Below are positions 14,513-59,705 of a stretch of DNA of 64,000 nucleotides, piece by piece. Position numbers and translations under genes: made by a program. This DNA comes from Brachypterus glaber (Eukaryota > Arthropoda > Insecta > Coleoptera > Kateretidae), in contig OY294051.1 in the NCBI GenBank assembly GCA_958510825.1, forward strand, positions 28,879,265 to 28,943,264. Reading direction: 5' to 3'. Below the pieces are notes generated by a model. That model was not told the origin of the DNA. It did not search any database and worked only from the letters and a program-made list of their open reading frames with translations. How positions within the stretch are numbered: position 1 is the first letter of the stretch; the number at the start of each line of letters is the position of its first letter.

Positions 14513-14520
14513 TATCTTAA

Positions 14521-32979: not shown

Positions 32980-33814
32980 ACACCCTGTAGAATAAAGATT
33001 TTAATTAACCTTCGGGATATGTGTGAATGAACGCGATATTGATGATCAAAAACCTGCCAGTTGCCAAACTAAAATAGAATGTAAATATAGGAGTAGTTTC
33101 TATCTTCATGCCGTGTCTAGACTAAGTCCTTTTTATTATACAAAACACAAATCAAATATCCTGCAACGAAGTTTTAGACACTCGTTGATAGAATCTATCT
33201 CTTCAGCGTCAAATTTTAAAGAGGTTTAGTGCCTATTCAAGCGAATCACGGCATCGCATTCTTATGTTTTATGTTCTTATGCAAGCTTCTGGATATGCCT
33301 TTATTCGTCTCATGTTATTAATTACAGTATATATTTCATTTGCTAAAAGAGCGACTAATTTTAGCGATGATGGGACCTGCTGTCAGTAACATTACCTACC
33401 CTCTGTTCAAGACATTGTTAAATTATGAAAAAAAAAACTAATTAAGTTTATTTCCAGTAGAGTGGATCTAATTAGTTGGGTAACTTATATATTAAAGTAA
33501 CAATAAATAACTATAGAACCCTAGTACATACTAAAATATCCAAACAGTTATTGACAATAAATTCTTAACCCAGTTATAAACTAAGAAAATACGATATTTT
33601 ATATATAAAAACTACCAGAGAAAAAAATCTGAAAAAGAAATATAAATTTGACTTTGGCTGCCATGTGTATCTCTCGGTGGGTCTCACTGAAAATAATTCC
33701 ATACGCTAAATAAACTACAGGGTGTCTCTAAAATGCTTGGCCAAACTCCACATACGGGATGTATAGAACAAAAACGTGAAAAAGGTTCCTGTAGACATGT
33801 GTACGGAAACGGTC
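32980..33814. other. unassigned stretch with solitary CAGGGTG-type ends
   Basis: CACCCTGTA ends at 32989, and TACAGGGTGTCTCTAAAATG starts at 33716, facing the iteron element. 33235-33303 holds a fragment of the TTAA element at 14521. The open frame 33023-33229 has no recognisable motif. Confidence 0.4.
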
Positions 33815-34562
33815 TTAACAGCAAAAAATTACCGCGACGACCATTACCGCGCAGTCCATTACCGCGATCGCCATTACCGCAACAATACATTACCGCGCAT
33901 GCCCTTTACCGCGAAGGCCATTACCGCGAAGGTCATTACCGCAACGGTCTTTACCGCGAACGGTCTTTACCGCGTATGACTTTTACAGCGAAAATCGTTT
34001 TTAATTTCATTTCATTTTTTATATATTATCTTTATTTTATGTAAGGGTTTTTTCGTGGGATTGATGGCAGTTTGGTTTGGTTAGTTTTGGTTTTGGTTTG
34101 GATTTTTATTGATAAAGTGGAACGTTTACTAAATGTACCCATATATTTGTGTTTGAGATTTTAATATGTGTTTTTTTAATTTGTATCAATTGATTTGTAT
34201 AAATCGCTGATTAATAATCAGTTTATTAGTACTAATCGTCATGTCGATAGAAATAATGAAAAGAACTAGGGGCAAAGACCTCGCTGTATAAACAGTTCAT
34301 AAACAGGAAAGAAAAGACTGTTAAAAATTAAAAAAAATGGAAGTGCGTAAATTACGACGTGCTTTGTTGAAAGGGACGTTTGCATACTTCGGACGGAAAT
34401 GTCAAGCCCACAACCCGGACCCAGCAGCTATATCATGTAGAACTGTTTGATTGTTTTCTGCAAAATTTTTATTTTTTTTTTTATTTAATCTTTTTTTCTG
34501 CAAAAAAAATAAAATAATTATGGGCGGTAATGGTTTTCGCGGTAAAGTCCATGCGCGGTAAT
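33815..34562. mobile_element. iteron-bounded element, copy A
   Basis: The left end carries about eleven tandem 15-16 bp units, each beginning TTACCGCG (or TTACAGCG/TTAACAGC at the edges), from 33815 to about 33990. The right end carries three units in the opposite orientation (CGCGGTAA) at about 34522-34562. The 530-bp core is non-coding. The core and both ends match 53149-53850. The two overlapping plus-strand frames across the array are products of its near-3n period, not genes. Confidence 0.85.
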
Positions 34563-34569
34563 TTAAGAA

Positions 34570-35139
34570 TTTCAAAATCGATATAATAAGCTAAATAAAT
34601 ATTAAGGTTGCCACTTCAACCGCTTAACTCGAACAAGATACCTATGCATTTTTGTTTTTTAGCAAGCAAGTGTCAATCCTCAAACAAATTTTTAAAGATA
34701 TTTTTTTTTATATAAAAAGTATAAAAAATAAACCAAAGAAAGCACAAATCATTTTCTACAAAAAATGTCCCAAGCAATTTTTAGCTATGACTAGATTTGT
34801 TTTTGCTCTCATATCTCCAAAAGTTCTATGCAACTCTTGAAGCATTAAAAACAAAAAAGAAAAAAACAACAAACTATAGTTTTTATTTTTACATTTTGAA
34901 AATTGTATGCTCTCGGCCAGATAGGATAATCGGATGCTATTTATGCATTCGGTCAGTGCACTTAGTTTCTGCTATAGTTCGCATTACCACTGCACAGTAA
35001 TGTAAGGTTGAATTATTATTAGCCAACATACCGTGTCTCGTTCGTAGGTATTGGGAGCAATATCCACCATTGATGCTGTTTGTGCCTGCCTAGGCACTCT
35101 ATTTCAGCTTAGATTTTTTTTACTTTTATAAGCATGATT
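34570..35139. other. unassigned AT-rich stretch
   Basis: The short plus-strand frames at 34652-35000 are lysine- and phenylalanine-rich with no motif. Nothing else was seen. Confidence 0.3.
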
Positions 35140-35140
35140 C

Positions 35141-35276
35141 TAATAGTATATTATGCACCTAGTATGCGAACTAAGTCTTTATTGTTCGAGACTGAAGTTT
35201 TTTTGCTGAGGCGGAGTCGAGGCAAAAAATCAGTCGAGAACACTTAAGACAGTTCGCATACGTGGTTCATATACCA
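35141..35276. mobile_element. hairpin MITE, AATAGTATATTATGCACC type
   Basis: The left arm GCACCTAGTATGCGAACT...CGAGACTGA mirrors TCAGTCGAGA...AGTTCGCATACGTGGTTCATATACC. The apex is TGCTGAGGCGGAGTCGAGGCA. Confidence 0.7.
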
Positions 35277-35309
35277 GGTAGTAACTCCAAATATTAGTTA
35301 CTAATGTAG

Positions 35310-35732
35310 CACGGTGTTCTAGAAGAACTTTTAAATGACATGACAACTTCCATTTTTTTTTCTTTTTGGAATTTGTTATATGAGCTCTAATTAAAAAAAT
35401 AAGACCAAAATTTTAAAAATCGTTAGAGCCGTTTTTGAAAAAATGTGATTTTTAGAAAATATCTCTTATATTTCACGCTAATGAAGTGCTTAGGTACCAT
35501 AATGGTACCACTATGCCAAGTTTGGTCAAAATCCGAAATATCGAGGGCAAACCGAGTATGTTAGCGTGAAATATCAGAGATATTTTTTAAAAAACACACT
35601 TTTATCAAAAACGGCTCTAACGATTTTTAAAATTTTGGTCTTATTTTTTTAATCAAAGCTCATATAACAAATTCCAAAGAGAACAAAAATGGAAGTTGTC
35701 ATGTCATTTAAAAGTTCTTCTAGAACAGCGTG
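35310..35732. mobile_element. foldback element with GTAG TSD
   Basis: The ends are CACGGTGTTCTAGAAGAAC and the complement of CACGCTGTTCTAGAAGAAC. A 4-bp direct GTAG flanks it (35306-35309, 35733-35736). The arms are about 185 bp. A CAC-start with a 4-bp target fits the CMC/Chapaev group; Transib would give 5 bp. Confidence 0.88.
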
Positions 35733-35739
35733 GTAGTTT

Positions 35740-36495
35740 AAAAACTATTTTGACATAGCTGTCAGTTTGACAAGTAAGTTGATAAAAGTTATCAGTATTC
35801 TTAATTTTTTTTCATTATTGACCGTCGTCAATAAACAATGCTTAACAACGGTCAATAATAAATGAGTTCACTGATTTTATTGGTTGTCAACGTAAACAAG
35901 CCTTGACAACGGTATATAATATGTAAGCTAGCACTTAATTAGGTAGTAGAAAAACAATATTATATTATCATATTACCAAGGTAAAAAACTCACAATGTGC
36001 TCAAGCCCAAATGTGCTATAAGTATTTAGCAAAAAGGATTTGCTGAAAAAAAATCTTCCTAAATAATTTTTTTTTTGAAAAGGAAAAAATAAATATTTTT
36101 TTCAAAAAAGGTTTATTTTTTTAAAAAACGAAAAAATAAAAAAAAAAGAAATTTGGATAAGAAACATATTATGTTCCAAATTTAAAGTAACTTTTTTGCT
36201 CAAGACCACGGAAAGTTTTTAAGTTCTAAACTTTAAAGAATCGCTTACTCCTAATCTTCATTTACACACACGGTATATTGTATTTACTTAATTTAACACG
36301 CCTTTATGTATATATGCATAGTATAATACCACATAGACGCACCGGAAATACCGGAAATTTCATTTAGATTTTTTTATCATACGTCCTACCAAATATTAAT
36401 TATTATTTCGACATTAGGTCAACGTCCCAAAAAAATTATCGTGTTAAATAATATGTTTTCATTAAAGAGTTGATAATGATAATTACATACAAAGT
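35740..36495. other. unassigned AT-rich stretch
   Basis: A short inverted pair TGACCG.CGTCAATAA / TTATTGACCG lies near 35818-35862. Otherwise it is featureless. Confidence 0.3.
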
Positions 36496-36587
36496 TTTTA
36501 ATTGCAAAATGCACTATACTTAGAGGAAGTCGGGGCAAGATCGGCTTGTAGGTGACGGGGTAATTAGGTACTGTCAATATCAACAAA

Positions 36588-36730
36588 TATTAGTTATTTA
36601 TGGTACTAGTGGGTAGAGTAAGATATTGCCTATGAGAAAATTGACCTGTGAGGCTTTAACCGAGAAGGTTAATTTAAAAGTTTAGATAGGGCAATATCGG
36701 TTTGCCATACAAAATGTTGTCCAATACCCA
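36588..36730. mobile_element. hairpin MITE, AATAGTTATTTATGG type, copy 2
   Basis: TTAGTTATTTATGGTACTAG is followed by AGATATTGCC and is mirrored by GGGCAATATCGGTTTGCCAT. It is reversed relative to 1649-1797. Confidence 0.65.
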
Positions 36731-36847
36731 TTTTAAACTTTTTTTTTTTTTAATTTATACATTAATTCTGTGTAAATTTTTGATTTAAACGTATAAATTT
36801 TACCTTTCAAAGACGTCGTCTATTAAATCAAGTAGGCAGCTTTAAAG

Positions 36848-37045
36848 TTTTGTCCAATACCCAAACTTAATAAGACAATTACAAGCTTCATTTTAAACAG
36901 AGAAACCTGCAAATAACCCACGCGTGGCTTTTACTTTATCACTTGCTAAGTAAAACGCATTCATCTGTCAAAATTTTTCGCTACAAGTTTCTCTGTTTAA
37001 AATAAAGCTAGTAATAGTCTTATTTCTTTTGGGTATTGGACAAAA
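36848..37045. mobile_element. palindromic element with TTTTGTCCAATACCC ends
   Basis: The ends TTTTGTCCAATACCCAAA and complement are followed by mirrored TAATAAGAC.ATTAC and TTTAAACAGAGAAAC. A solitary copy of the end, TTGTCCAATACCCATTTTAA, lies at about 36718. The inner sequence CACGCGTGGCTTTTACTTTA also occurs at about 1512. Confidence 0.7.
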
Positions 37046-37395
37046 TATGTAATTGCAAAATATACTATAGTATTAGTACTAACTATACTTAGGGAAAGGT
37101 GGGATAAGATCGGCTAGTAGGTGGCAGGGAAATTACACATCGTTAATATCAAGCATTCCATTTTTATTTATTGGTGTGGCTTACTCTAGCTGATGATGTG
37201 ATCTTATATTAGGATTTTCTTTCATATTTCAAGTCTCGGTTTAAGCCTAAAAATTCATTTTTGCTTTTAACGTACCTTTAGTCGCATGCCTACCTACAAA
37301 CCCGACAATACTGGCTCCTTTAAATCAATGGGTATAGAACGCCTATAAGCGTCAGTGGCATTTGGCCTAAGCATACCTTGACGTTCGTAAGCGTC

Positions 37396-37415
37396 ATTGG
37401 CAGCGAACGTGTTAA
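37396..37415. mobile_element. solitary piggyBac-like MITE end
   Basis: GGCAGCGAACGTG followed by TTAA is the mirror of the TTAACACGTTNGCTGC end seen at 60246. The left partner is not clear. Confidence 0.4.
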
Positions 37416-37705
37416 AAGTCGAATGAGCTTTAAAATGCCAGATTATTATATCATTACTGCATTAGTTTTTAGTAACTAAAACTGTTGCTCTATGCAATAT
37501 GAATAAGAGAGTTGTTATTCCTATTAAGGGAAAAATAACGATCCAATAAGAGAGTGGTAAAATAAAAGGATTTCGTCTAATGGTGAGTAAGTGGAATTCT
37601 TCCCTGTCCGCCTTTGCGTCTACATCGGGCGTTAATATTTATGAAATGTGTAGATTTGTGACAGAAAGGACCTTGTTTGTCAATAAATATTCAGAAAATC
37701 GCGGT

Positions 37706-38105
37706 TAAAGGGGCATCGTATTTTGAGCTAACTCGCGTTCAACGATAAGATTTTACATACTTATAGATACATAAAAAAATATTTTTTTTTAAATTTCAGC
37801 CCTTTTTATGGCCCGGAACATATTTTCATTAATAATTTTAAATACGAATGTTAATATATAATATATATAAAAATAAGTTTGCACATTGACTACTACTGTG
37901 GGACCAAGGGAAAAGTGTGTTGTATTGTGTTAACCGCCCGGGCGCGCTGTAAAATTAAAATATTTTGTTGTTTTTTTATTAATTTTTACGAATTTAACAT
38001 GATGTAGAATACACATGTAATTAGGCTGGACTAGTTTATTATGTTTTAATAAGATTATAGTTAGTTTTGAGGTATTCATACTAATAACGTTGTAAAGCAA
38101 TCCAG
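37706..38105 (+). repeat. dispersed repeat family R1, single-unit copy
   Basis: It aligns with 13552-14030 over the lead (ATCGTATTTTGAGCTAACTC, CAACGATAAGATTTTACATA, TTTCAGCCCTTTTTATGGCC) and into the first tandem unit, but carries only one unit. Confidence 0.75.
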
Positions 38106-38109
38106 CAGC

Positions 38110-39680
38110 TTCAACGGTAACCCAGAGCCCATGGGACTTTTAAAACAAAAAAGTTATGATGGGTTAAACTTAAAAGAAAATAAAAAAAAAGCTGAAAATT
38201 CCGATTAACGTAATTTTTTCAGGAAAAATTACTTTTATTATAAGGATCAATTATACAAAAAATAAAAATAAAAAAAGTGAAAAATTTTGAAATTTTTTTT
38301 TTCATGTTTTTTTTTTATTTTTTTTTTATTTTTTTTTATTTTTCGTCTTTTGCTAATAGAAAATTTAATAAAAAAAAATTGAAAATTTTATATAAAATTG
38401 TATTGTCAACCGAGTTAAGCATGTGTACTAAATTTCTAAGTATCTTCTAAATGGCCATTTTTTGCTCCGACATGTAGCGACATTAACTAAATGAGTAAGG
38501 CTCTTTCTGGCATAAGTCCACAAATAGCTCTCGAAAGGCTAACTCGATTATGCATTTAAATTGATTTGTCTATTCAATCATGGGTTTTGTTTTTATTATA
38601 ATGCAGACGTATCTCAAAAATCTCAGATAAAATTTAAATTTAGGTGGATTGTTTGGCTTATTCTCAATGACAATTTATTTACTTTATAACAAAGGGTGAA
38701 GATAGTTATTTATGTGGCTAGAAATTCTCGCCAAGAAATGTAGATTGTAGATTATTGTTCAGGATATTTTCTTTGAATACAGTCACAACATAATTAAAAC
38801 GTTTTCTCAGTGTATCTAGAAAATAGTGTACCTACACGCGTGTACCACTCTTAATTTGTAAATATTTGTGTGCCAAGATTAGAAGGAACGTCTTTTGTTG
38901 GACTGTTTCCAACTCGGTTTCCAAAAAAGGAATGTTTTTTCAAAAAATTTTGTTTTTATTTGCGAAAAACGAAAAATGTTTGTAAATTGTTTTTTTATTT
39001 TTTTTTAAGTTTAACCCCCATAACTTTTTTGTTTTTGGGGGGATTACTTTCAAAAACAATAGGGATCTTCCCCTTATAGAACTTAATTTTTCCCGAAAAT
39101 TTCGAGTCGATCGGATAATTCCTTCCTGAGTTATCGTGTCTTCAAAAAACGTGACATCGGAAGGACGGACAGACAGACAAACAGACAGGTAGATAGACGG
39201 AATTTTCAAAGTTTCTTATTTTTTCATGAAACACATCCACAAAGTCCAAGAATTTCTTGTCTAGGACGTTTTTTGCCGATTTTGGGAATTTTGAAACTAC
39301 CGTATATACCTACCTAATACTATTCTAGCGCTTGCGCTTAATTTATTGTTCCTAACAACAGATAAAAATGTAAAAATAGCATAATTCTAATGAAACAGTA
39401 TAATTTAGAAACATCTTTGTTGTGACAATGAACTTATATGAAACGATAACTTAGATAACCTTTAAATGTGCATCTTGGGTTCGTTCGTAATAAACGTTTA
39501 ATTGCCGCAGTCTTAATTTAAAGCAATTGATGTGTTCAGGATGTGAGCAGATCATTCATACATTTTTTCTCGAAGAATTAAGATTTCAATGTCAAATAGG
39601 ACAAGAAATGGAATCAAGAAATCGTAATGACAATTTCACAAGTTGCATTGGTAATTTGAACTGGTGCAATTATCACCTTG
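38110..39680. other. unassigned stretch with low complexity and a GACA microsatellite-like tract
   Basis: T- and A-runs fill 38200-38400. At 39160-39200, GGACGGACAGACAGACAAAC lies downstream of a TCGAGTCGATCGGATAATTC block. The associated open frames are repeat-derived. Confidence 0.35.
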
Positions 39681-39681
39681 T

Positions 39682-39820
39682 TAATAGTATATTAAAGTAC
39701 TAGTTTCATAACATACGTTTTTAGCGCACGAATACAAGTTTAGAAAACAAGCCGCTTGCGGTGAGTTTTCTAAAGTACTAGTGCGCTAAAAACGTGTTAT
39801 GAAACGAGTGCTTTATACAA
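39682..39820. mobile_element. hairpin MITE, AATAGTATATTAAAGTAC type
   Basis: TTTCATAACATACGTTTTTA followed by GCGCACGAATAC mirrors GTACTAGTGCGCTAAAAACG then TGTTATGAAA. The apex is GCCGCTTGCGGTGAG. It is the same family as the inner part of 16137-16358, without the extra outer arms. Confidence 0.8.
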
Positions 39821-39829
39821 TTTTTTCTA

Positions 39830-42479
39830 TTTTGCTCTAAAATTTAAAAAAACTTACATTTGGAGGTTTACATTTAAATTGATGACTGATTTAGGGATTT
39901 TTGTTTCGAATTGGCATTACAGTTTTCGCCATGTTTAAAATTCTAAAAACGAGTATTATTTTGATATATTTTATAGTCATTTCTTCTCTTTTCCACTGCA
40001 AGTAACCAAGCCACAATTTTAACACGGTAAAACATAACCTAAACACAAAATTTTGTAGAAAATTAAACTTTAAACCGACGTTCACAATTGCACGGCAAAC
40101 GTCAAGAGATAGACTTTTCTCTGTTGCCAACCCAAAAGAGAAAAAAGTACAGACCTCTTATGGGCCTATAAGAACACGCAAAATGCGTGTGATTATGAGC
40201 TTATAAGAGTCCTAAAATAGAAAAAAGTTTTATAAAATAGTCCATAAAAATATCCTTTGTGTAACTTGAATTATTAGATAATTTTGTTCTGGCATAACAA
40301 AAACATTTTGCTTTAAGAAAATTGTCCTCGTGTAGTTCAAGCGCTAGAAAATTTCCAAGAAAAATGCTTTTGATATACCAAAACAAAATTGTCAATAATT
40401 CGACTTGCACTAAGACAATTTGCTTGTCAAGAAGTAAAACATTTCCTGAAGAACGAGGTTTTTAATTTTGTAGAAAATTTCATTCAATGTAAAAAATTAA
40501 AATTATTATTTTTTTCTTACAAAATTACTACAAGACGTGTCTAATTTGATCTATGAAACTATTATATTGAGAAATAGATTAATATAACTAATTAATTAAT
40601 TAATATAACTATTTGTTTTTATTTGACTTTTCCCCTTTGGCTTACAATATCAACCAAAAGAAAGATCTTTATTTTGTCAAAAAAGCTTTACTACTTAATG
40701 CTATAGCATACTTAACATATTCTAGACAATCTGGTTGACGATAAAGTTGATTTTAACTTGAGGCTGGGGGTGCCAGTCTAGTACATTCAAAAATGTTTTT
40801 TATGTAATTTTATAAGAAATATTCGAAAGGAAGAAACGAGAGGTAAACCGCGAGAGGAAGTCATTGTACAAGCTTAAGCAACTCCGGGGGAGAGTTAGGG
40901 GAAGTTTGGAGGGTGTCTGGAAGAAAAAAAATAAGTAAACGTGTGAAGGAAGAAAATTGTTCCGCTTATAATATTTTTAAACGTAAATTCACCGCCTTTT
41001 GTATTATTTTTGAACATTATGTGACTGTGAGACCATTGAAAACCAGATAGAAGAAAGGGCGCCCTTTGATGAAGACATCTAGCAGGGCAAAGGTCAGAGA
41101 TTTTCTTTCATAACAGACATTTTCATAATTTAATTTTTTTGGTAAAAGTAGGGTATTCAGAGTAGTTCAAATTGCCTCAGAGTCTCAGACACAGTCTCAG
41201 ACTCGGAGAGAAAGTCAGGAGTCAAAATATGAAGTATTGTATAATTTTTTCCTCGTCGCTTACCTGTTATAACATGATTGCTGTGTCAACGTCACTAAGG
41301 TACACTTTAAAATACATAATTTAACAATATTAACACTCAAATAAAATAAGTTATTTTCTTGAAAAGACTCAGACTTGGTATTGATTTTCAAAATGAGGTA
41401 GAAATTCCACCATAGCTACGAGTATAATCATAAGTAATTATTTTTTACTGAGGTGTTTACAATAAAATTTGATCCCTTTGTACTATTTCTTGGATTAGTT
41501 GAATGAAACCGACATCCTGTTTGCGAAAAAATTAGCCTTTAAGCCCGTCACACTTCATTATATTTAGTCAAAATAAATAGGTGTGTGGGCTATAATGTAC
41601 AGACGGCTGGGAATGACCATTTTAGTTTATTGCCCCCTGTTAAAGGGCACTCCTCTAGTTACACGTTCCTTTTTTTTTAATTTGCATTTTATGTACTACA
41701 CGCTAGATTTTTTCCAGAAATGCAAAATTACTTGTCGTTTCATTATTTTTATGAGAGTCTTAGATTTACCTTGCAAAATGACCATCTTAAATGATAAAGC
41801 ACAACAGATTTTTTACAAATTATTGGAGACTATTAGATAGCAGGGTTCCCGTTATGGGGGGCAGGGGGGAGCGCCCTTTCCCCAATCGCTCTTGAGTTGG
41901 GAAACTCGCACTCTCGAGCACTGTCTATAGATCATCCAGATGAGAAAATTAATCAGTTTTGGTCGGTAAATTTTTGCCAATATAAATTTTAGCGGCATCA
42001 CTTTTAGTGTTATAAAACCCTATGTATGTGGAACTGTTAAGATATCAATTAATTATTCATATTTTTTTATAAATCGCACACAGTATAAAAATTTCCTTTT
42101 GTATTTAAAGTACCTATGTCAAAGAAAATCTAACCGTATCAACGTTTCCTTTTGTAATTGAAGTACTTATGTCATAATCAGTAATTCTTTTTTATTTTTA
42201 GAATATGAAGCGTTCACAATGTCCTTGGTAAAAAAGGGTATATAACCTAAAATTAGTACTGGTAATTATTATACTCGAACCAGAGAAGGCCTTAAGGGTG
42301 TATGGTCAAAATTGGTCATACCTAGGTATACCTAGCCTAGACATGACCACATGACTACTTTGACCGGTTATGGACTCGTTGACGCTTCATCACTACTTGA
42401 CACTCTGAAATTGACAGCCAGATATTTGTCGTTAAATGACATGGTTGGTCAATGACGTTTCATTTTTTCAGACTGAAAA
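39830..42479. other. unassigned stretch, 2.6 kb
   Basis: A 56-bp palindrome lies at 40154-40209 (CTCTTATGGGCCTATAAGAA / CTTATAAGAG). A purine-rich patch lies at 40830-40930. The frame at 41583-41840 has no motif. This is the longest stretch without a clear element. Confidence 0.4.
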
Positions 42480-42483
42480 CATA

Positions 42484-43239
42484 TTATAACCAGTACCTGG
42501 CGTATTTCCAGTTATAGTCCAGTCTTCAAGTTAATAAAAGAGGCTTCACCTGGAAATAATTCAGGGAGTTTCGATTTTTGGTTTATTAGGTAGGGTTTAA
42601 AGAACTTATTTTTCACAAAAACCAGACTTTTTAAAATATCTCAAGATCGGTGCATCCTAGAACAAAAAACTTTTGATATGAAAATAAAGAGGACCAAATC
42701 TTCAACATTTTTTTTGTTATATATTTTATTGTACGACTTATAGCTAATTCACGGCACCGCCTTAAACGTTACACTGTAGGGTTTTAGATTTTTCTTTATG
42801 ACTCGGTTAGGACGTTTTTTTTATGCTTAATACAATGGTGATTCAATCGAAAATCGGTTTACTCGAAATAATGGGGCACAAATGTGTGAATTATTTAAAA
42901 AAAATAATTTTACGTAAATTTATTTTCACCCAAAACGTTCTCAGGGGCATGTCTAACCGACGATAAAGAACAATTTTGGTTTTTCGAAAAAACATTAAAA
43001 ATCTAAAAACGTATTACACTATTAGGAGATATTTTAAAAATCCCTTTTTTGTGAAAAACGCGTAAAAAAATGAAAGTTCCAAATCGAGTTCAACGGCGCA
43101 ACATTTTTTTTTATTTGCGGCCATTAACCCTACCCAATAAACCGAAAATCAAAACTCCCTGAATTATTTCCAGGTAAAGCCTCTTTTATTGACCTGAAGA
43201 CAGGACTACAACTGGAAATACGCCGGGTAATGGTTATAA
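42484..43239. mobile_element. foldback element with CATA TSD
   Basis: The ends TTATAACCAGTACCTGG and near-complement lie between direct CATA copies (42480-42483, 43240-43243). The arms of about 120 bp include CGTATTTCCAGTT, AAAAGAGGC and TGGAAATAATTCAGGGAG. It is 756 bp and non-coding. Confidence 0.85.
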
Positions 43240-43442
43240 CATAAATAAATTTATTAATTTTTAGTCTTTTTGGGACCTTTTTTACCATAATTCGATATTT
43301 TAAAAAAATAAGGAAAATATCAGTGGCGTAGCGAGTAGGTTTTTACGTGAGTCGAGAAACGGAATGGAATAATCTTGTTAACAATTTATCTAAAATTAAG
43401 TTCTTGTTTCGCAAAAGTCTCAAAGATAAACTTTTTGTTTCA

Positions 43443-43942
43443 TCACGCGAAATTCTTGATTTTCAAAACTCTAGATATTCGACCGAGCAAAAGCAAACAT
43501 GAATAACCAGAAGCAAAAACTAATGATTCAAAGAAATCCATAAATATTTCTGCTAGTATTGGACTCATTGGTTCACCCATATCTAAACCGTCTTTACTTT
43601 TATAGTGCTTCCCATTAAAAGTGAAAAAATTCTGTTCAGCGCAATGCTTGATTAAAGCTTTAAAAGATGATCCTTCATTATCGGATAAGTCTATGATGAC
43701 TTCATCCACCAGACTTAAGACTTTTTAACTGGAACATTTGTAAACAAATCTTTCACATCCAAACTAACTAAAAAACCTTCTTTACCAAGGTCCAAGTCCT
43801 TGACCTTTTTAACAAACTCGATTGATTTCTTGGCTGATCTCTTTGGTTTAAAGATATCCAGTAGATATCCTAATGGGTAACAACGAACAAGGCCCGTTTT
43901 GATTAAGTACATATTTATTTGAAAATTGTCTGTTTCCTCCAT
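43443..43942 (-). pseudogene. Penelope-like element reverse transcriptase fragment
   Basis: In the minus-strand frame from 43942, LVSLDVKDLFTNVPV is the palm A motif of Penelope-like reverse transcriptases. After a frame slip at about 43710, the next frame carries GLDMGEPMSPILAEIFMD, their palm B motif (usually GLPMGSPLSPILAEIFM). The catalytic YVDD motif should follow but the sequence is cut off at about 43440. Penelope elements encode a reverse transcriptase fused to a GIY-YIG nuclease; here the parts are rearranged. Confidence 0.88.
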
Positions 43943-44017
43943 AACGCCTTATAATGAACATAAATTTAAATTTGATTGTTAGTTAACAAATAAATGACCA
44001 AGAAATTAGTTTTATTT

Positions 44018-44172
44018 ACATCCAAACTAACCTTCTTTACCAAGGTCCAAGTCCTTGACCTTATTAACAAACTCGATTGAGTTCTTGACTGATCTCTTTG
44101 GTTTAAAGATATCCAATAGATATCCTAATGGGTAACAACGAACAAGGCCCGTTTTATTTAAGTACATATTTA
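44018..44172 (-). repeat. duplicated Penelope reverse transcriptase piece
   Basis: This repeats 43755-43915 in the same orientation (ACCTTCTTTACCAAGGTCCA; GATATCCTAATGGGTAACAA). A second shared block, 43906-44021, recurs at 45478-45593 and starts GTACATATTTATTTGAAAAT in the second copy. The two block pairs show the inner copy was spliced into another copy of the same element. Confidence 0.85.
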
Positions 44173-44509
44173 TAAAGAACTTTCACTTTCGGGTTTAGAC
44201 CGTGTTAATGGATTTTCACTTTCCGACGTTTCGTCTCTTACTACTAGAGACATCTTCAGGGATTAATCTGAAACTAAGTTTCGAATCAACTTGTGTCACT
44301 TTTTATGACGAGTTGTGGTTATTCACCCGTGACGAGGTTTTTCCTATCACAGACTTCCATATTGCAGGTAAGTGGTAACCAGTGTCCCGATTGATATTGT
44401 TAGGATGCTTGATGATTTCTATCGATTCCCGTATCTTCCTTGGCATTTTTCTGTTTTCTGTTAATATTTGTTTTGTTTCAGACAAATTGATTTTATGACC
44501 TGTTTCATG
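44171..44509 (-). mobile_element. Penelope 3' end, minus-orientation arm of a 339-bp inverted duplication
   Basis: It holds the C-terminal 60-odd codons of the GIY-YIG protein (SETKQILTEN..MPRKIRESIE) to a stop at 44303, plus about 130 bp of 3' flank with a hammerhead-like motif. It is matched by 45102-45440 in reverse; paired positions sum to 89611 across the arms. The two protein copies differ at only two residues (R/K and V/L), so the inversion is young. Confidence 0.92.
44225..44259 (-). ncRNA. hammerhead-like ribozyme motif (degenerate)
   Basis: Read on the minus strand: CTGAAGA, a six-bp stem GTCTCT/AGAGAC, then GAAAC and GTC. CTGANGA, stem II and GAAA are the hammerhead core, and hammerheads are known in Penelope-like elements. 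There is an unpaired T before the stem and no visible stem III, so activity is doubtful. Confidence 0.4.
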
Positions 44510-45101
44510 TACATGTTCGGCTACTGCCGATAAGGAAATTTGTTTCTTTCTTATATTGCGCTCATGCTCTTGAAGTCTTGTAGAAATTTTTCTCTTAGTT
44601 TCACCTATGTAAACCGTACCACAGGAGCAGGGTATTTTATATACGCCTTCTGAACTCAGGGGTATTTTGTCTTTTGTTGAAGTAAAACATTGACCTAATT
44701 TTTGGTTGGACCGAAATATAGGCTTAATATTTCACTTCTTCAAAAGTTTACCTATTTTATCCGTGATACCGCTTACATAGGGAAGTATAACTTGTGTCTG
44801 TCTGTCATTGTCACTATTGTCCTGTTGTTTGGGTCTGGGATTTCTGTATTTGTATATGGTCTTATTAATGTCTTTTTTGGTATAACCGTTCATGGTCAAG
44901 GCTTTGGTTAGTTTAAGGAGTTCTGTCTAGGGAATTCTTGTCTGAAATCATGAAAGCCCTATGAACAAGTGAATTAACTACCGAGCGTTTTTGAGAGGGA
45001 TGGTGATGTGAAAATGCGTTTAGGTATCTGTCAGTGTGGGTTTTCTTCCTGTATACCGAGTGTCCTATTGAGCCATTTTCCGTTTTGTAAACCAAAACGT
45101 C
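44303..45101 (-). pseudogene. Penelope-like element, post-RT region and GIY-YIG endonuclease
   Basis: Reading from 45101, DVLVYKTENGSIGHSVYRKK is the segment after the reverse transcriptase palm. A frameshift at about 44930 leads to LTKALTMNGYTKKDINK, a premature TGA occurs near 44738, then VYKIPCSCGTVYIGETKR with R..EHERNI is the GIY-YIG nuclease core with its Cys pair. The protein ends at 44303. GIY-YIG nicks target DNA for insertion. The domain residues G-Y, Y-I-G, R and E-H are visible, but the frame breaks make the locus non-functional. Confidence 0.92.
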
Positions 45102-45440
45102 CATGAAACAGGTCATAAAATCAATTTGTCTGAAACAAAACAAATATTAACAGAAAACAAAAAAATGCCAAGGAAGATACGGGAATCGATAGAAATCATC
45201 AAGCATCCTAACAATATCAATCGGGACACTGGTTACCACTTACCTGCAATATGGAAGTCTTTGATAGGAAAAACCTCGTCACGGGTGAATAACCACAACT
45301 CGTCATAAAAAGTGACACAAGTTGATTCGAAACTTAGTTTCAGATTAATCCCTGAAGATGTCTCTAGTAGTAAGAGACGAAACGTCGGAAAGTGAAAATC
45401 CATTAACACGGTCTAAACCCGAAAGTGAAAGTTCTTTATA
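45102..45440 (+). mobile_element. Penelope 3' end, plus-orientation arm of the inverted duplication
   Basis: This is the mirror of 44171-44509, joined head-on to the minus-strand protein region at 45101/45102. Penelope-type insertions often carry an inverted partial copy at one end, and this fits. Confidence 0.9.
45352..45386 (+). ncRNA. hammerhead-like ribozyme motif, second copy
   Basis: Identical 35-nt motif to 44225-44259, in the opposite orientation. Confidence 0.4.
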
Positions 45441-45724
45441 TCTTAATGGCCGTGAAAGCTTAAAATCTAAAAAAGTACATATTTATTTGAAAATTGTCTG
45501 TTTCCTCCATAACGCCTTATAATGAACATAAATTTAAATTTGATTGTTAGCTAACAAATAAATGTCCGAGAAATTAGTTTTATTTACGTATAAAGTGTAA
45601 TTATTTTATGAATCGTGGGTGCACAGAAAATTCATTACATTGTATTTGTCTATTAATGCTTAAGGTTTGCATTTTATTATTTTATATAAATAATATACAT
45701 CGTAAAGTATTAACAAGTTGTATC

Positions 45725-45812
45725 ATTGGCTTGCTCTTTAAACCTTATTTTCAATGTTTGCAATGATTGTCCAACGTATGTTTTGTCACAGCTTCTGGCA
45801 GCCACATGCTCC
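45725..45812 (-). pseudogene. separate GIY-YIG fragment
   Basis: The minus-strand frame reads CDKTYVGQSLQTLKIRFKEQ, the C..YVGQT.R.L..R..EH pattern of retroelement GIY-YIG domains. It differs from the neighbouring element, so it is a scrap of another Penelope-like family. Confidence 0.65.
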
Positions 45813-45819
45813 ATCTATA

Positions 45820-47759
45820 AATATGAATAATAATTATAGATTATTACAGATTATCACAGATTATTTTTTCTGGTTATTTTAAATGGAATTATTTATATAC
45901 AGAGTGTCTCAGAATTAACGCATCTAATTTTAAGGGGTGATTCTAGACAAAAAAAAAACGATAAAAAGTATCTATAAATATGTCCAAAAACGGGTTGTAA
46001 GGGTCTCCAAAAATTCGGCTGGTATTTAATAACTCGGAAATCCTTGGAGATATAGAAACAAGGTTTTGCACCTAATCTGACTTTAATATGATCTATCATA
46101 ATGTGTTACATTCAGGGGCGTACGTAACGGGAGGGATTTTCACTTTTTTGCTTCAAACTTATTTATTTCTATCTTTTTTGTAGTTTTATTATTAAAATAT
46201 ACAGAACCTATACATTTTTATATACATGACTTTTGTATCTATATTAATTTATTTACTCTTTAACCTACCTTTTATTTGCCCTATAAATGTTGACAAAGTT
46301 ATTGCAATATTAACAATCTTATGTCAATTTTGTAAATATCTTTTTTAAAATAAAAATCTAATGTAACAAGCTAAATTATTTTTGGAATGATGGTTTTGAA
46401 GAGGTATGAAGAAGACGAGAATCTGATGAATTGGAGGTGAAGCGCAAAAGAAGGAATTTGAAAATTTTATGTATAATCTATCAAAATTGGCACTGTATTT
46501 TTTTTTTAATTAATGGAGAGCCCCTAGCACAAGTCAAAAGCTTATTTGGGGTTCTCCATGCCTATGTAATATCTGCAAAAATAAACTATAGCTAATATAA
46601 AATTCAAAATTACTCGAACTGACTTATCACAAAAATAGTAAAAAATGGTACATAAATACTAGGTGATGCTTTTATGATGTACAACAGCTGGGTAAAATGC
46701 AAAATCCGACGGTTTTATGTAGGTATTATTTTTTGAGGACGTCAGTCTGAATAGCTGTGAATTTGACTATAGTATCAGGTTTTTCGTACATTATTTGCCA
46801 TGGCATCGCCATTTTATTGTTAAACATTAACTATAGGATAAACATTGGAAATGTTTGCCTTAACGTTTAACGTATACATATCGTATATAAAATTATTTGT
46901 CAAGGATTTTTTATTGTCCTATTAAAGCTTTTTACTTTTGCCATTTGGATTTATATGGTTTTATGGCGTTTTTGTTAAACGTCAGAAGATTTATAGAAAT
47001 TATTGTCAGGATTTACGATTTCTAACACAATTAGCAATGTTTATTACAATTTTGCGAAATAGTATTATCTTAAATTAAATGCAAAGATAAAAATTAACCA
47101 GTCATGTAAAAATGACATGTCGTTGTTATTGCTGTTGAGTTATGAAGTGAGAAATATGCTTAAAACGCCTGTTAAAAGGTCCTAGCTTTCTTAATTAAGA
47201 GAAGATTTAATCCAAAAGTGCATAATTGCATATCATTATTATGAACTTGACGTAAAATCAGCTTTTAAATCTATGTAATATCTCGTACTTTTATCAAAAA
47301 CAAACGAAAATCGTTTTTCTCAAAAACGGACGTAACCAGTCACTGGTTCCTTTTATTTTGATCTTAAAATAATTTTTACCACTCGAATTATGACCAGACC
47401 CCGGAATAAATATGACATTGGTCGTATATACCAGTACCGGGTTTAAAAGAATATGCCTCGAAATATGCATTCTAGTATACTCTGTTTAATTCATTTTTTA
47501 CTGCAACAAGTATACTGTAAATTGTTATAAAACAGTTTGTATACTTTTACAATATTATAAAACATTTATCTAATAATGTAAATAACAATTCTATCTTTTA
47601 TTTTTAAAATGTTATATTAAGTATAAGGACCTGTTCAAATATAACTATTAGACGTTAATCGTTTATATATAAAGTATACTTGAGTGAGCCTTACGTATTT
47701 CGTTTTTTATATGGCATTAAGAATCATATAGATACCGATTAAAACTCCTATCGGAATTA
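45820..47759. other. unassigned stretch with solitary element ends
   Basis: A CAGAGTGTCTCAGAATTAAC end starts at 45900 after TA. CAGGGGCGTACGTAACGGGA, at about 46113, resembles an hAT end. A 12-bp-stem hairpin (ATGGAGAGCCCC/GGGGTTCTCCAT) lies at 46513-46559. No coding signal was found. Confidence 0.4.
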
Positions 47760-47761
47760 TA

Positions 47762-48475
47762 CAGTGCGGTCCAAAAGTCACCCCCCCCCCTTTTAACTTT
47801 TGAACGAGTTGAGATATCGACTTCAAATTTAGAACTCTTAAATAAGACAACTTAAACTATCTTTTAGCATATATTTGATATTTTCAGCTCTTAAAATGTG
47901 GGCAGGGGGGCATGGGGGGAAATTTTTTTTAAATGGAAAGGGGGGTCGTGTGATACATCATTTTAAAGCTTATAAAATTTTCTATTTAAACAAACATTTT
48001 AAAATTTTTTAAAAATGTTTTTTAAGGTTTTGATTTTTCAATTTTTTGTGCTAAAACATTCGCTTTTTTAAGTTTTTTTTTTATGTCAACTAAAATTAGT
48101 TTAAAAGTATAATTAACATTTTTTTAAGAAGAAATTAGGCATTTAAAAAAAATATTTGTTTTTTTTTAGTGGAATTTTGACATTAATACCCATTTTCAAC
48201 CCCATTTTAAAGCCCAAAACATTCTTTTTTAAATTTAAAAATATGGAGTTAAATGGAGAATTTTATAAGCTTTAAAATGATGTATTACACGACCCCCCTT
48301 TCCATTTAAAACAATGAGCCCCCATGCCCCCCTGCCCGCATTTTAAGAGCTGAAAGTATTAAATATATGCTAAAAGATAGTTTAAGTTGTCTTGTTTAAA
48401 AGTTCCAAATTTGAAGTCGATATCTCAAATGGTTTAAAAGTTAAGAGGGGGGGGGGTGACTTTTGGACCGCTCTG
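47762..48475. mobile_element. TA-flanked MITE with CAGTGCGGTCC ends
   Basis: The ends CAGTGCGGTCCAAAAGTCACC-type and complement lie between TA (47760-47761, 48476-48477). Arms of about 220 bp include CTTTTAGCATATATTTGATA and GGGGGTCGTGTGATACATCA. It is 714 bp, with homopolymer C/G runs just inside each end. Confidence 0.85.
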
Positions 48476-48479
48476 TATG

Positions 48480-48905
48480 GTATTTTTAACAGGGTATTTG
48501 GGTGTGTTGTACGTCATACGTAATTTTTTATATACATCGGCATTTTTCTTCACAATAATTCTTCATTTTTTTATCACAGTGTTTATATTTTTGGTCGATA
48601 TTTAGTAAAAAGTCCTTATACAAATTGCCTTAGTTTTATTGTTACATTGTGTAAATGCGTGCGTATGTTAAAAAAGTAAACTATATCTGTGATTGGTTTT
48701 GAGTGGAAACAAACAATGAATAAAATAATAATTCTTTAATAAAAAAATACTTCTTTAATTCTTACTATTCTTCTTAAAACTAAAATAAGGTATAGGTAAT
48801 AATATTACATATTATGTAATAAAGAATATTTTGAAACATTTCTATACTAATGCACGTTCCATCCTGTATTTTTTCATTTGTCATACTTATTCCGGGGTCT
48901 GATTA
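48480..48905. other. unassigned AT-rich stretch
   Basis: Nothing recognisable was found. Confidence 0.25.
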
Positions 48906-48909
48906 TATT

Positions 48910-49509
48910 CCAGTCAAATAATAAATGTAAATTGCAATAAATGTTCACGGGCTGATATTTTAAAGGGTAGTACTGGATGGTAACAGAACACTCCTGTTAG
49001 TTTTTCACCGGGTGATTTGCGTAAGGGGTGTCCGCTAGCTCTTGAAATTCTCTATAAGTTTCATATATTATAAGTTTTTATAGGTACTTTGGTATGGTTA
49101 CAGAGGGTGCAACTCGACTTTCAGCGCCCACTGTAACCGTAACAAAATATTTATGAAGATGCATTATATACAACTTATAGAGAATTTCAAGAGCTACAAA
49201 TTTGCTCATAACCACTTTTACCCTCCGATGAATAATTTGGCTGAAAAATCGAAAAAAAACAATTTCATTTCAACAAAAATTGTTGAAATTTTTTTCCTTA
49301 ACAAAATTGGTTATATGCATTTTTATCGTAAGATGCATCTTTAGCGAGATAACCGCACTCGTCCCTAAAATTCAAGATAGCGGACACCGCAAATCACATG
49401 GTGAAAAACTAACAGGGGTGTTCTGTTACTATTCACTACTACCTTTTAAAAAATCAGCCCGTGTACATTTATTGCAATTTAACAAAGGAATTTCTCGTTA
49501 TTTGACTGG
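48910..49509. mobile_element. foldback element, 600 bp
   Basis: CCAGTCAAATAA at the left mirrors TTATTTGACTGG at the right, followed by AATTGCAATAAATGT.CACG and GGTAACAGAACACTCCTGTT pairs. A separate inner inverted repeat (AGCTCTTGAAATTCTCTATA at about 49037, mirrored at about 49176-49195) is nested within. Short frames across the right half follow the arms. Confidence 0.85.
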
Positions 49510-49997
49510 ACTATTTTGACATAAAAAAATTGGTATGAGAAAATCGAAACATAACTTGATTTCAGCGCACCGTTTATCGCAATTTAGTTTCGAAATATTA
49601 TCAAATACTCGGTCAAATGGGACCTTATCGTGTAACAGGACTCATTTTACGAAATTATCCTATCTTAAGCAATTAAGTGCAAAGATAAAATATGGTTTAT
49701 TGCAGTTTATATTCAACAGATGCTAAACAATAATACCTACATACTAATCTTTTGTTGCCTCTAATCCTAGATTTAATGGCGAATAAATCATTTTGCTTTT
49801 AACCAGGCGGCCACTGCAGGAGCTCTAGGATAACTACCGCATTGCACCTATTCTGGAAATCCAAGTAATCCATTACTTAGCTGGAAATACAATTAACAAA
49901 AATGTCTAAAAATACCGGACATGCAATTATTATTTTGAACACTTTAATTTAAATACTTTTTGTAAGCTTGTAAAATTAAATTTAAATTAAATTTAAA
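49510..49997. other. unassigned AT-rich stretch
   Basis: No coding or repeat signal was seen. Confidence 0.25.
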
Positions 49998-50068
49998 TAG
50001 AGCACTGGATAGGCAGGTTTGTTAGGGTGGGTAGGTAGTTTACACACTACACAAAAGAAAGTACCGAC

Positions 50069-50314
50069 CAACGAACTAATAACTCTTCTCTCTAGAATAG
50101 GCATTTCATTTGTAAAAAAACGTAGCCAACATATACAGTTGTCTGTCTTACTCGCACAGCTTTGTTCTAACAGAGACAACAATAACAGTTACTGGTAATT
50201 GGTATTGTTCAGGCCTGAATATACCTACTATTTGTTTACAAACAAACCAAGATGTTGGCGATACTTTGTATTAACGGTATGCGTATTCTAGAGAGAAGAG
50301 TTGTTAGTTCGTTG
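50069..50314. mobile_element. hAT-like MITE family H1, copy 2 (TSD GTACCGAC)
   Basis: It is 246 bp with ends CAACGAACTAATAACTCTTC and complement and a perfect 8-bp duplication GTACCGAC (50061-50068, 50315-50322). It is nested in the 1.9-kb element. Confidence 0.93.
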
Positions 50315-51095
50315 GTACCGACATACACAAAATCTCAGGCCGAAAATGGCGGACGGAAGTGCGTCATCTAAAGGAAAATTTGAAGAAAATAATTTTTCAT
50401 TTTAATTGTTATTCTATTTGACACGAAAGTTTGGCAATAATAGAAAATAATTTATGACAGTTTGCATTAATTTTCAGAAAATTATTTTCTGAATATTTTC
50501 GAATAAACTCTATTTAAAGATGAATTAACTTTAAAATGGTGTAATTTTATATTTCCCGTGTACAGAGCTAATCAATGGTGCATTTTGATAATATTTTGTT
50601 GATTTGGTTAACTTATTAAACTAACTTAAAGTATTTTAGGTAAAAATAGCTTTTCTTTATTTTCTTTCTAAACTAAAAGATATTTCGTAAAATCAGAGCC
50701 TCGCTAATAATAAGGTATGAATTAAATTATTATAAATGATCTACCAAATTACCTAAAACTGCATCAAGAGATTTTAAAAGATTTAAAACAAGGTTTTAAA
50801 TCAGCAATTATTAGCTCTAATGGATATTCAGCATTGGTAATACATTAGTTAATAATAAATTGTATGAGTTTTGCTAAAATTCTGATTCTCTTTAGTAAAG
50901 AAATACAAAAATATTACTACATGTGAATAAGTTATAAACATTTTAGAACTATAATTTTAAACAAGCCCGTTTGTAAACAGAATGCACTGTATCTTCTATG
51001 TAGTTTATAAACAAAACGCCTTAAAAAAACTATTTTATTAGAAAGTTTGGATAAAAATATTCAAATAGTCATAGTTTTAACCTAAATAGTTAGCG

Positions 51096-51726
51096 CAAAT
51101 CGTCTTGTAAATTTCAGAACGTCGTATCTCAAAAAAAGACAACTTTACAGGAATGAGAAATAACTATTTCTCGCATTATTCATAAGTTGAAAATGTACTT
51201 TTTTAATATAAACTTAATACATTTTTAATGATTAACTGACCTTAAATCATTTTATTGTATAAAATAAATAAATACAAATAAAAACCTGATGTTTATAGAT
51301 ACGACATTTTGATCCTCAAAATTAATAAAAATTTTTAAGATACGAGCTTTGAAACATTATTATATTAATATTTTGACAAAATATAATTAAATATTATAAT
51401 AATATTATTAATTATTGAAACATTTAAACTTCAAAAAGTTTTATAACATGCGCATAAGATGTCAAAAAAGCGTCGCCAAATGCAAAAAGTGCGTTCCAAA
51501 ATAGTCAGTTAACTAGAATTAAGAGATACGAGGTTTAAAAATTTATTAATTTATGAGCATCTAAGATACGACATTACTATTTTACTTATATTTTTGCTAT
51601 TTAAAAAAAATAGCAGGTGGAACTTATTTTTTAGATGTAAATTGATACTATAAAGCATTTAGGTCCAAAATCTCAAAATCCAAAAAAATTGAAATACGAC
51701 GTCCTGAAATTTACAAGACGAAATGT
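51096..51726. mobile_element. inner inverted-repeat element
   Basis: CGTCTTGTAAATTTCAG at about 51101 mirrors CTGAAATTTACAAGACG ending 51720. The motif (A)TACGA(C) recurs at about 51130, 51300, 51343, 51529, 51566 and 51695. Confidence 0.6.
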
Positions 51727-51899
51727 TTGGTGTATAACAGACTTGATTTCGACAATGGTTTTGCTGTAGCAACGACATGTCCTGTTTCTAGGAAAATTTC
51801 TTGCGGTCTGAAATTTTGGCTATGTCGGAACTCTCCTGCGGAACCACTCAAACTACCCACCTACTCTAACAAACCTACCTCTACATGCTCTACATTTAA

Positions 51900-53148
51900 C
51901 TTAACTGTTAAAATAGTATAGCGGGTGTCCCACCAGGTCCTTGACAAGCTATATCTCCGTTATTTGAAAAGCTATTTTTTTTGCAAAAAACAGTGTTAAA
52001 TGGGAGCTATTGAATTTTTTATTCTCGGAACAACTCTTTGCTTACCCACCCCTTTGAAACCACCCCCAACTTATTTTTTTCAAATAGTAACCCCCATTTT
52101 TATCAAAGAATATGAAAGTAAATTTAATTCTGAATTCAACCATATATTATAAGTGGTTCTTATTATTTAACGGGCTTCAAATAACAATTATTTTTATTAA
52201 TAATAGGATGGTATTTAGAACAAACTTGCAGGTGGTTCCATGATAGTGGGTTATTAAGGGTGGTTTTTGGATACATTAATCAGTTCTCTTTTAGATATAA
52301 TCTAACGTGAGTTTTTTTTAATTTTTTTGATGAAAAATATTGCTTGTGATCTGATGGTGTTATACTTTGGAGCCCCTTAAAAAAAAATAAGAAATCATAT
52401 TTCAGAATATACATATTCTCCTTTCAAATACCATATTCTTATCCTTTCGTGTATTTGAAGCAAACTATTGCTTTAAATGACAATATATTCTCTTGATTTA
52501 AAACAATATTTTTTTCTGTGTAGATCTGCGTAGATCTGCGAGTTTTAGAGGTTACTTCAAAAAGAAAACGAAATTTGTTTAATTTCTTTTTGTTTGTATG
52601 TGACGTCACATACCCCCCACAAATTGCCTCCCTTTCATTATCTAAAAGTCTCTCACTTGTAATAATATTATTACTTGTTTAGATGCTACACAGTATTATT
52701 TCTATTCATAATACCACAGGCTTATTTGTATAATTTAATAGATTCTTCCCTCGCACGGGTTGTTAACCTCAAATAGTGGGGGATGATACACCTACTTGTA
52801 GGGTTTATCATAAATTACACAATTTATTATGTATTTTTATAAATTTATGTGTCAATGTTTTCTAATAGTATTATTCCAAAGGATTCCCTAAGTTTAGATG
52901 ATAACACAGACCCACAAAAAAATAAAGTCAATTACTCTTTAGCAGGCTACATTTTTCTAACGTATTTTTAGCGCTGGGAACGAGTATGACAGTGAAAAAA
53001 CTCGCTCACCCCATAACTTTTTCAAAAAAATGCAAAAAAGTATACTGGTTGAGCTAGATCGAGATTTTAAAAAATCTCTGACACCTGCATTATTTAATTT
53101 TGCGAGTTGTATCTGAAGACACTTTTATATCCAAATGGGCGCCGGACA
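51900..53148. other. unassigned stretch with a solitary GCGGGTGTCCCACC end
   Basis: After TA at 51919-51920 comes GCGGGTGTCCCACCAGG, a CAGGGTG-type left end with no partner. The rest is AT-rich, with a direct GTAGATCTGC pair at about 52521-52540. Confidence 0.4.
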
Positions 53149-53850
53149 TTACAGCGAAAAAACAACCGCGAAGACCATTACCGCGCAGTCTATTACCGCG
53201 ATCGCCATTACCGCCACAAGCCATTACCGCGCATGTCCTTTACCGCGCAGTTCATTACCGCGAACGGTATTTACCGCGTATAACTTTTACAGCGAAAATC
53301 GTTATACATTATTTTTATTTTATGTAAGGGCATTTCTGTGGGATTGATGCGAGTTTGGTTTGATTAGTTTTGGTTTTAGTTTGGATTTTTATTGATAAAG
53401 TGGAACGTTTACTAAATGTACCCATATATCTGTGTTTGGGTTTTTTGTGTTTTAATTTATATCGACTGATTTGTATAAACCGCTGATTAATAATCAGTTT
53501 AGTACGAATCGTCATGTCGATCGAAATAATGAAAAGTGCTAGGGGCAAAGACCTCGATGTATATAAACATTTCATATACAGGAGAAAAAATACTGTTAAA
53601 AATAAAAAAAATTGTAAGTGCGTAAATTACGACGTGCTTAGTTTCAAGGGGTGTTTGCATACTTCGGACGGAAATGTTTTAAAGTAAACTAGTAAAGGTC
53701 ACAACCCTGACCCAGCAGCTATCAGTTAGAACTGTTTGATTGTTTTCTGCAAAATATTATTATTATTTTTTATTTAATCTTCTTTTCTTCAAAAAAAATT
53801 AAAATAATTATGCGCGGTAATGGTTTTCGCGGTAAAGTCCATGCGCGGTA
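53149..53850. mobile_element. iteron-bounded element, copy B
   Basis: It has about nine TTACCGCG-type units at the left (53149-53294) and three inverted units (CGCGGTAA) at the right (about 53811-53850). The core shares AAGTGGAACGTTTACTAAAT and GTGCGTAAATTACGACGTGC with copy A. Confidence 0.85.
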
Positions 53851-53890
53851 TTAACCCCTTCGCTTCACGCTCTTACCATAAGTATATATT
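53851..53890. mobile_element. solitary piggyBac-like MITE end
   Basis: TTAACCCCTTCGCTTCACGC directly abuts the right end of iteron copy B. It resembles the end of 59714-59870. No partner was found. Confidence 0.4.
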
Positions 53891-59344: not shown

Positions 59345-59705
59345 ATGGTTTGCTTACAATGTTATTATAGTATAAATACCTCAAAAATAACTCCATAATC
59401 GTACTGAAACTTAAGAAACTAGTCACATAAGTCCAGTCTAATTACACATTGAATTACAGTATATTAAATCCGTGAAAACTAATAAAACACAACCAAATAT
59501 TTTAATATTATAGTCAAGAGCAGTGGACACAACACAGACCCACTTTGGCCCCACTGTAGTAGTTAATGTGCAAAGTTCTTCTTCTTCTTCTTCTTCTTCT
59601 TCTTCTTCTTCTTCTTCTTCTTCTTCTTCTTCCTATAATTATTAATGTGCAAAGTTATTTTTATTTTGACGAGATGACATTTGACACTTGAAGTGTATAT
59701 AAAAT
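59345..59705 (-). repeat. dispersed repeat family R1, inverted copy with (CTT)n expansion
   Basis: The reverse complement matches 13696-13990 (GACTATAATATTAAAATATT; TAGTAGTTAATGTGCAAAGT). A (CTT)n microsatellite at 59575-59632 has expanded inside it, and the AATGTGCAAAGTT next to it is duplicated on both sides. Confidence 0.8.

What the first reader, a model, noticed from the sequence alone, without database searches (positions are those of the whole stretch)
33815..53850. Two elements bounded by inverted arrays of a 15-16 bp TTACCGCG iteron
33815-34562 and 53149-53850 have the same plan: 9-11 tandem units starting TTACCGCG at one end, a non-coding core of about 500 bp, and three units inverted at the other end. 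Conventional TIRs are absent; the arrays act as the termini. Unit spacers vary while TTACCGCG stays fixed, which suggests selection for a protein-binding octamer, such as a multimeric transposase or replication initiator. I do not recognise a described family with this layout.
Basis: partly seen in the sequence, partly recalled or inferred. Interest (0 to 1): 0.8.

Follow-up and report, generated by a model that had tools for sequence, protein, structure and literature searches.

The report
Truncated Phantom-like Mutator transposon copies
The two elements are broken copies of a known kind of "jumping gene" (a non-autonomous Mutator transposon of the Phantom/Muta type) whose ends carry rows of a short repeated motif, so the striking layout is real but not new in kind.

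Summary
The arrays are real: 18 exact TTACCGCG in the window against 0.64 expected. They belong to two 3'-truncated copies (33804-34562, 53137-53864) of a multicopy family in the same 648 Mb genome: 40 places scored, E1 included, of 988 candidates. Copies with both ends are about 0.8-0.9 kb: 12-bp terminal motif, array, core, inverted array, 12-bp motif, and 9-bp target duplications. Of 23 scorable copies (of 31), 14 have a duplication with at most one mismatch; mismatched-pair controls gave 0 of 506. The core is a decayed FLYWCH zinc-finger frame; four hand-picked copies hit Pfam above its cut-off (E 1.4e-6 to 1.5e-8). Two longer relatives in the genome carry FLYWCH plus a MULE transposase domain between inverted arrays; one has matching ends and an exact 9-bp duplication. 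Published Phantom/Muta-type Mutator elements (Muta1/Muta5, Tm1) have this layout. Verdict: a new member of a known kind. Whether a repeat library already names it could not be checked. Divergence of the FLYWCH frame across copies shows no clear selection.

The parts
33804..34562 (+). Element copy E1 (minor subfamily, keeps the W of the FLYWCH domain), 3'-truncated; left terminal 12 bp decayed (33804-33815, tentative)
33816..33990 (+). E1 left array: a degenerate TAACAGC unit, then 11 TTAC[C/A]GC units, 15-16 bp period
34241..34450 (+). E1 remnant of the FLYWCH frame (start MSIEIMKRTRGKDLAV, tail HNPDPAAISCRTV; stops and frame changes between)
34523..34562 (-). E1 right array, only the three innermost inverted units left
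53137..53864 (+). Element copy E2 (major subfamily), 3'-truncated; left terminal motif GGGCGCCGGACA, one base off the common form
53149..53294 (+). E2 left array: 9 TTAC[C/A]GC units and one CAACCGCG unit
53514..53729 (+). E2 FLYWCH frame: 57-aa open part (53514-53687), stop, then GHNPDPAAIS in the same frame
   Evidence: Pfam PF04500, E 0.0032, below the cut-off for this decayed copy
53813..53851 (-). E2 right array, three innermost inverted units; the family spacer ATT(G/A)ACCCCTTCGCT follows to about 53864

Best explanation
E1 and E2 are decayed, 3'-truncated copies of a non-autonomous (internally deleted) DNA transposon of the Mutator superfamily, Phantom/Muta type. The parent would have coded for a FLYWCH-MULE transposase. 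Loss of everything after the FLYWCH domain left a short element that kept both ends. A transposase made elsewhere in the genome would bind the TTACCGCG iterons in the two inverted arrays through its FLYWCH domain, pair the ends, cut at the outer 12-bp motifs and insert with a 9-bp staggered cut. Shown: copies, ends, 9-bp duplications, FLYWCH homology of the core, and FLYWCH-MULE relatives with the same octamer and, in one of the two, matching end motifs. Inferred: the internal deletion, FLYWCH binding to the octamer, mobilisation in trans, and the cut positions.
For: 40 scored dispersed places, E1 itself included, 79-100% identical to E1. Ends GGGCGCCGGACT / AGACCCCTACCC with 9-bp duplications: of 31 copies, 23 had both ends set; 6 of these are exact and 8 have one mismatch; control 0 of 506 with at most one. 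The consensus core ORF of 31 copies hits PF04500 at E 8.4e-9; four hand-picked single copies with long frames hit at 1.5e-8 to 1.4e-6, above the cut-off. Of 18 PF10551 (MULE) places, L035 and L046 are the only two with TTACCGC arrays within about 1.5 kb, and the only two with strong matches to the core's FLYWCH frame; six others match it weakly and in part, at E 0.036-0.049. L053 (same place as L035) has a MULE domain at E 4.7e-16. L054 (same place as L046) has the exact duplication CAAACGCGC and matching end motifs. Of 15 database proteins found with L053, all 15 carry PF10551 and 5 also PF04500; the best is 53% identical. Published precedents: passages.
Against: E1 and E2 themselves show no target duplication: expected if truncated, but not proof. 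No intact autonomous copy was found; the search for more transposase copies did not complete. Both coding relatives are broken. L035 is only about 67% identical at DNA level to the core over 225 bp; L046 matched only in the arrays. Spacers differ, and L053 has no recognised left end. Eight of 31 copies were left out of the duplication count because an end was not recognised. Nine of the 23 counted have two or more mismatches; some are off-by-one or mis-set ends, but not all were resolved. L041, a third MULE about 33% identical to L053 over most of its length, has no arrays within about 1.5 kb. No tree was built.
Confidence: 0.95

Rival explanations
1. A new kind of element whose iteron arrays are themselves the termini, bound by an unknown multimeric transposase or replication initiator.
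For: Layout of E1 and E2 taken alone.
Against: Copies with both ends finish in 12-bp motifs outside the arrays, with 9-bp duplications. Coding relatives with the same octamer in inverted arrays encode FLYWCH-MULE.
Confidence: 0.01
2. Foldback-like element of another superfamily (for example P-type, as Galileo is) that only resembles Phantom.
For: Foldback-type arrays occur with unrelated transposases, according to passages read in PMC3169594.
Against: FLYWCH core, MULE domain in the relatives and 9-bp duplications.
Confidence: 0.02
3. The short element is kept because its solo FLYWCH protein acts on the iterons (repressor or competitor), not just because it is mobilised in trans.
For: The consensus of 31 copies has an open 75-codon FLYWCH frame; 4 of 31 copies still reach its end in frame (L007, L022, L027, L029). 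dN/dS is a little under 1 (about 0.76, crude and untested).
Against: Divergence by codon position 5.2/4.4/5.9% against 5.1% outside the frame. Fixed subfamily differences 8 of 228 in the frame against 20 of 331 outside, 13 of these 20 bunched at the array edge. The major subfamily lost the conserved W of the domain. 27 of 31 copies do not reach the end in frame.
Confidence: 0.04

Closest known systems
Muta1 / Muta5 (Aedes aegypti MULEs; PMC5225508, passages read)
   Same: 8-9 bp target duplications; a short terminal motif, then 9 copies of a 12-bp (Muta1) or 15-bp (Muta5) subterminal tandem repeat as part of the TIR; hundreds of derivatives, in Muta1 often with shortened arrays.
   Different: Muta1 is intact and moves in a yeast assay; here only broken coding relatives were found. 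The Muta repeat letters were not in the passages read, so sequence identity was not compared.
Tm1 (Mutator/Foldback family of Meloidogyne; PMC3169594, passages read)
   Same: 9-bp duplications; asymmetric terminal motifs outside an array of 13-15 bp repeats of variable number; MITE-like members; FLYWCH + MULE transposase. Its motif A2, CCTACCC, equals the last 7 bases of the right end here (a resemblance, not tested for significance).
   Different: Different repeat unit and other terminal motif A1; nematode host.
Phantom subclass of Mutator (Marquez and Pritham 2010; paper not held; known here from passages of PMC3169594 and PMC6446971 and from recall)
   Same: FLYWCH N-terminus, MULE domain, complex or foldback-like ends.
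   Different: Membership by tree not tested here.

Membership tests
Mutator superfamily, Phantom/Muta type | MULE (PF10551) transposase encoded by the family or a close coding relative | tested here: met
   Met in the relatives L035/L053 and L046/L054; E1 and E2 lack it (non-autonomous)
Mutator superfamily, Phantom/Muta type | N-terminal FLYWCH domain | tested here: met
   PF04500 in four hand-picked single copies and in the consensus; E2 itself only below the cut-off; solved FLYWCH1 domain 2rpr at E 3.1e-7 with a hybrid consensus query
Mutator superfamily, Phantom/Muta type | 8-11 bp, mostly 9-bp, target-site duplications | tested here: met
   14 of 23 with at most one mismatch against 0 of 506 control pairs; 8 of 31 copies not scorable; L054 exact. 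Not seen at E1 and E2 themselves
Mutator superfamily, Phantom/Muta type | Inverted subterminal tandem arrays inside a terminal motif | tested here: met
Phantom (group 20 of PMC6446971) | DDE domain falls in the Phantom clade of a tree | not tested
   Only pairwise similarity and domain make-up
Mutator superfamily, Phantom/Muta type | Mobilised by the FLYWCH-MULE transposase | not testable with these tools
   needs a transposition assay
Any named Repbase family | High identity to a catalogued consensus | not testable with these tools
   no repeat library held

The most novel reading that the evidence does not exclude
The internally deleted element spread as a unit that carries an open solo FLYWCH gene between its own binding arrays: a self-encoded, iteron-binding competitor of the transposase that regulates the family.
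Probability: 0.04. Interest if true: 0.45.

Novelty: new member of a known kind. Interest (0 to 1): 0.2.

Why it matters
It shows that the array-bounded layout is explained by a known transposon type. It adds a family in which terminal motif, octamer, 9-bp duplication and FLYWCH remnant can be read together. TTACCGCG becomes a concrete candidate binding site to test for the FLYWCH domain of MULE transposases.

Tried and rejected
TTAA-type (piggyBac-like) ends were considered for E1 and E2 because TTAA or TTA lies near their apparent ends. They were dropped once other copies showed the ends and 9-bp duplications.

A viral link was looked for. A pattern of three spaced octamers hit 4 IMG/VR stretches. 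These have 48-59% GC and short repeats at 13-18 bp spacing, with no second array in the DNA held; L002-L004 are parts of longer contigs. They were judged unrelated. A scan of viral contigs with the E2 frame matched patterns in 10 stretches, none a relative by tblastn.

A protein search with the first 72 residues of the E2 frame, padded to 500 residues by reading on, found 1 candidate and no hit. The octamer as a word occurs in 3,078 papers; I saw only the listing of 20 and did not follow it. A paper search on Phantom, Mutator, subterminal and insect listed two Galileo papers (listing and abstract starts only). One on Mutator-like, subterminal repeats, transposase binding and tandem listed none.

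The octamer/spacer profile picks units by at most 2 mismatches to the octamer, so octamer conservation there is inflated. The two subfamilies (24 and 7 copies) were split by identity to the consensus, not by a tree. The dN/dS uses only codons with a single change from the consensus. The four copies were chosen among 31 for their long frames.

Full report
Observation. Both arrays are present at the stated places. TTACCGCG occurs 18 times in the window, all of them in the two elements, against 0.64 expected. The units have a 15-16 bp period. E1 has 11 TTAC[C/A]GC units on the left; E2 has 9 and one CAACCGCG; each has three inverted units on the right. E1 and E2 are homologous along their length (81%).

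Copies. The window's own assembly (648 Mb, 842 contigs, unnamed) was searched with E1. Of 988 first-look candidates 40 were scored, E1 itself among them, at 79-100% identity. E2 is not among the 40, so this is a lower bound. Thirty loci were fetched; with E2 from the window, 31 copies were oriented and measured. They count 2-11 units on each side. Three of 31 (E1, E2, L006) have 2-3 units on the right; the other 28 have 5-11. E2 runs on into a spacer found in other copies (ATTGACCCCTTCGCT) before it stops at about 53864; E1 stops at about 34562. Both are therefore 3'-truncated, at different points.

Ends. Outside the left array copies have GGGCGCCGGACT; outside the right array they have AGACCCCTACCC; the 9 bp beyond are duplicated. 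Ends were set by at most 5 mismatches to 20-mers read off the same copies. This left out 8 of 31 (E1/L005, L006, L011, L012, L013, L016, L017, E2). For the other 23 the mismatches in the 9-bp flanks were: 0 in 6 copies, 1 in 8, 2 in 1, 4 in 1, 5 in 1, 6 in 2, 7 in 3, 8 in 1. In 506 mismatched left/right pairings none had 0 or 1, and one had 2. Some of the poor ones are end-setting errors: in L009 and L027 the right end fell on the internal spacer, and for L027 a free scan shows an exact 9-bp repeat. Anchored at these ends, exact repeats number 6 at length 9, 1 at length 8 and none at 7, 10 or 11.

Core. The E2 core holds a 57-aa frame matching FLYWCH weakly (E 0.0032, below cut-off), then a stop, then GHNPDPAAIS in the same frame. 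E1 has the same pieces in shifted frames. The consensus of 31 cores has an open 75-aa frame, E 8.4e-9. Four single copies picked for long frames (L007, L017, L022, L027) give 1.5e-8 to 1.4e-6, above the cut-off. The frame aligns with the N-terminus of FLYWCH-MULE proteins and stops just after the domain, which I take as the deletion point. The 7 copies of the minor subfamily, E1 among them, have W in the consensus of the domain; the major one reads C there. Divergence from the consensus is 5.2, 4.4 and 5.9% at codon positions 1, 2 and 3 and 5.1% outside the frame; dN/dS is about 0.76. I read this as no clear selection, though no test was made.

Coding relatives. The PF10551 search found 18 places. 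Two (L035, L046) have TTACCGC arrays facing inwards on both sides within the fetched flanks of about 1.5 kb. The same two match the core's FLYWCH frame (68-70% identity over the first 23-31 residues, 56-59% over the rest). Six others match it weakly (E 0.036-0.049). L053 encodes a MULE domain (E 4.7e-16), with CDGTF and TDFE in one frame and TNNYVESWH in another (that these carry the DDE residues is recalled). L054 is bounded by GGGCGCCGTCTTTTACAGCG and CGCTGTAAAAGACCCTATCC and by the exact 9-bp duplication CAAACGCGC. L053 lacks a recognisable left end and duplication. Both coding copies are broken by frame changes. With L053's 260-aa frame 15 proteins were found at E up to 0.001; all carry PF10551, 5 also PF04500, and the best, P0001, is 53% identical.

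Mechanism. Most likely: mobilisation in trans by a FLYWCH-MULE transposase that binds the iterons. The octamer TTACCGCG is shared between the short family and its coding relatives although spacers differ (with the selection caveat given in Tried and rejected). Binding and mobilisation are inferred, not shown.

Known kinds. Muta1 of Aedes has a 10-bp terminal motif and 9 copies of a 12-bp subterminal repeat with 3-4 bp spacers, 8-9 bp duplications and over 300 putative derivatives, often with shortened arrays; Muta5 has nine 15-bp repeats (passages of PMC5225508). Tm1 of Meloidogyne has asymmetric 7-bp end motifs, 13-15 bp tandem repeats, 9-bp duplications and a FLYWCH-MULE transposase; its A2 motif CCTACCC matches the right end here (passages of PMC3169594). 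A survey lists Phantom with 8-10 bp duplications or none given, TIRs of 18-613 bp or none, and FLYWCH, SWIM or no zinc finger (passages of PMC6446971). The finding is thus a new member of a known kind; whether it is already named in a repeat library could not be checked.

Noticed in passing
44171-45440: Inverted repeat with 354-bp arms, 98% complementary; a 142-aa frame (44303-44731) overlapping one arm looks like a Penelope-like GIY-YIG endonuclease tail (label recalled; Pfam gave no hit).
   Followed up: partly
13880-14513: Three tandem copies of a 208-bp unit, 98% matches; an 87-bp inverted match to each lies at 59347-59433.
   Followed up: no
2606, 9093, 14632, 23254, 24703, 57888 (one orientation); 9212, 14718, 23458, 56504 (other): Dispersed family around GGGAACGTTCAAGTATTACGTAACGC in both orientations, probably a MITE.
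   Followed up: no
L036, L039, L040, L042, L044, L047: A second MULE group in the same genome with a different FLYWCH domain and no TTACCGCG arrays within about 1.5 kb (L036 has one lone TTACCGC).
   Followed up: partly
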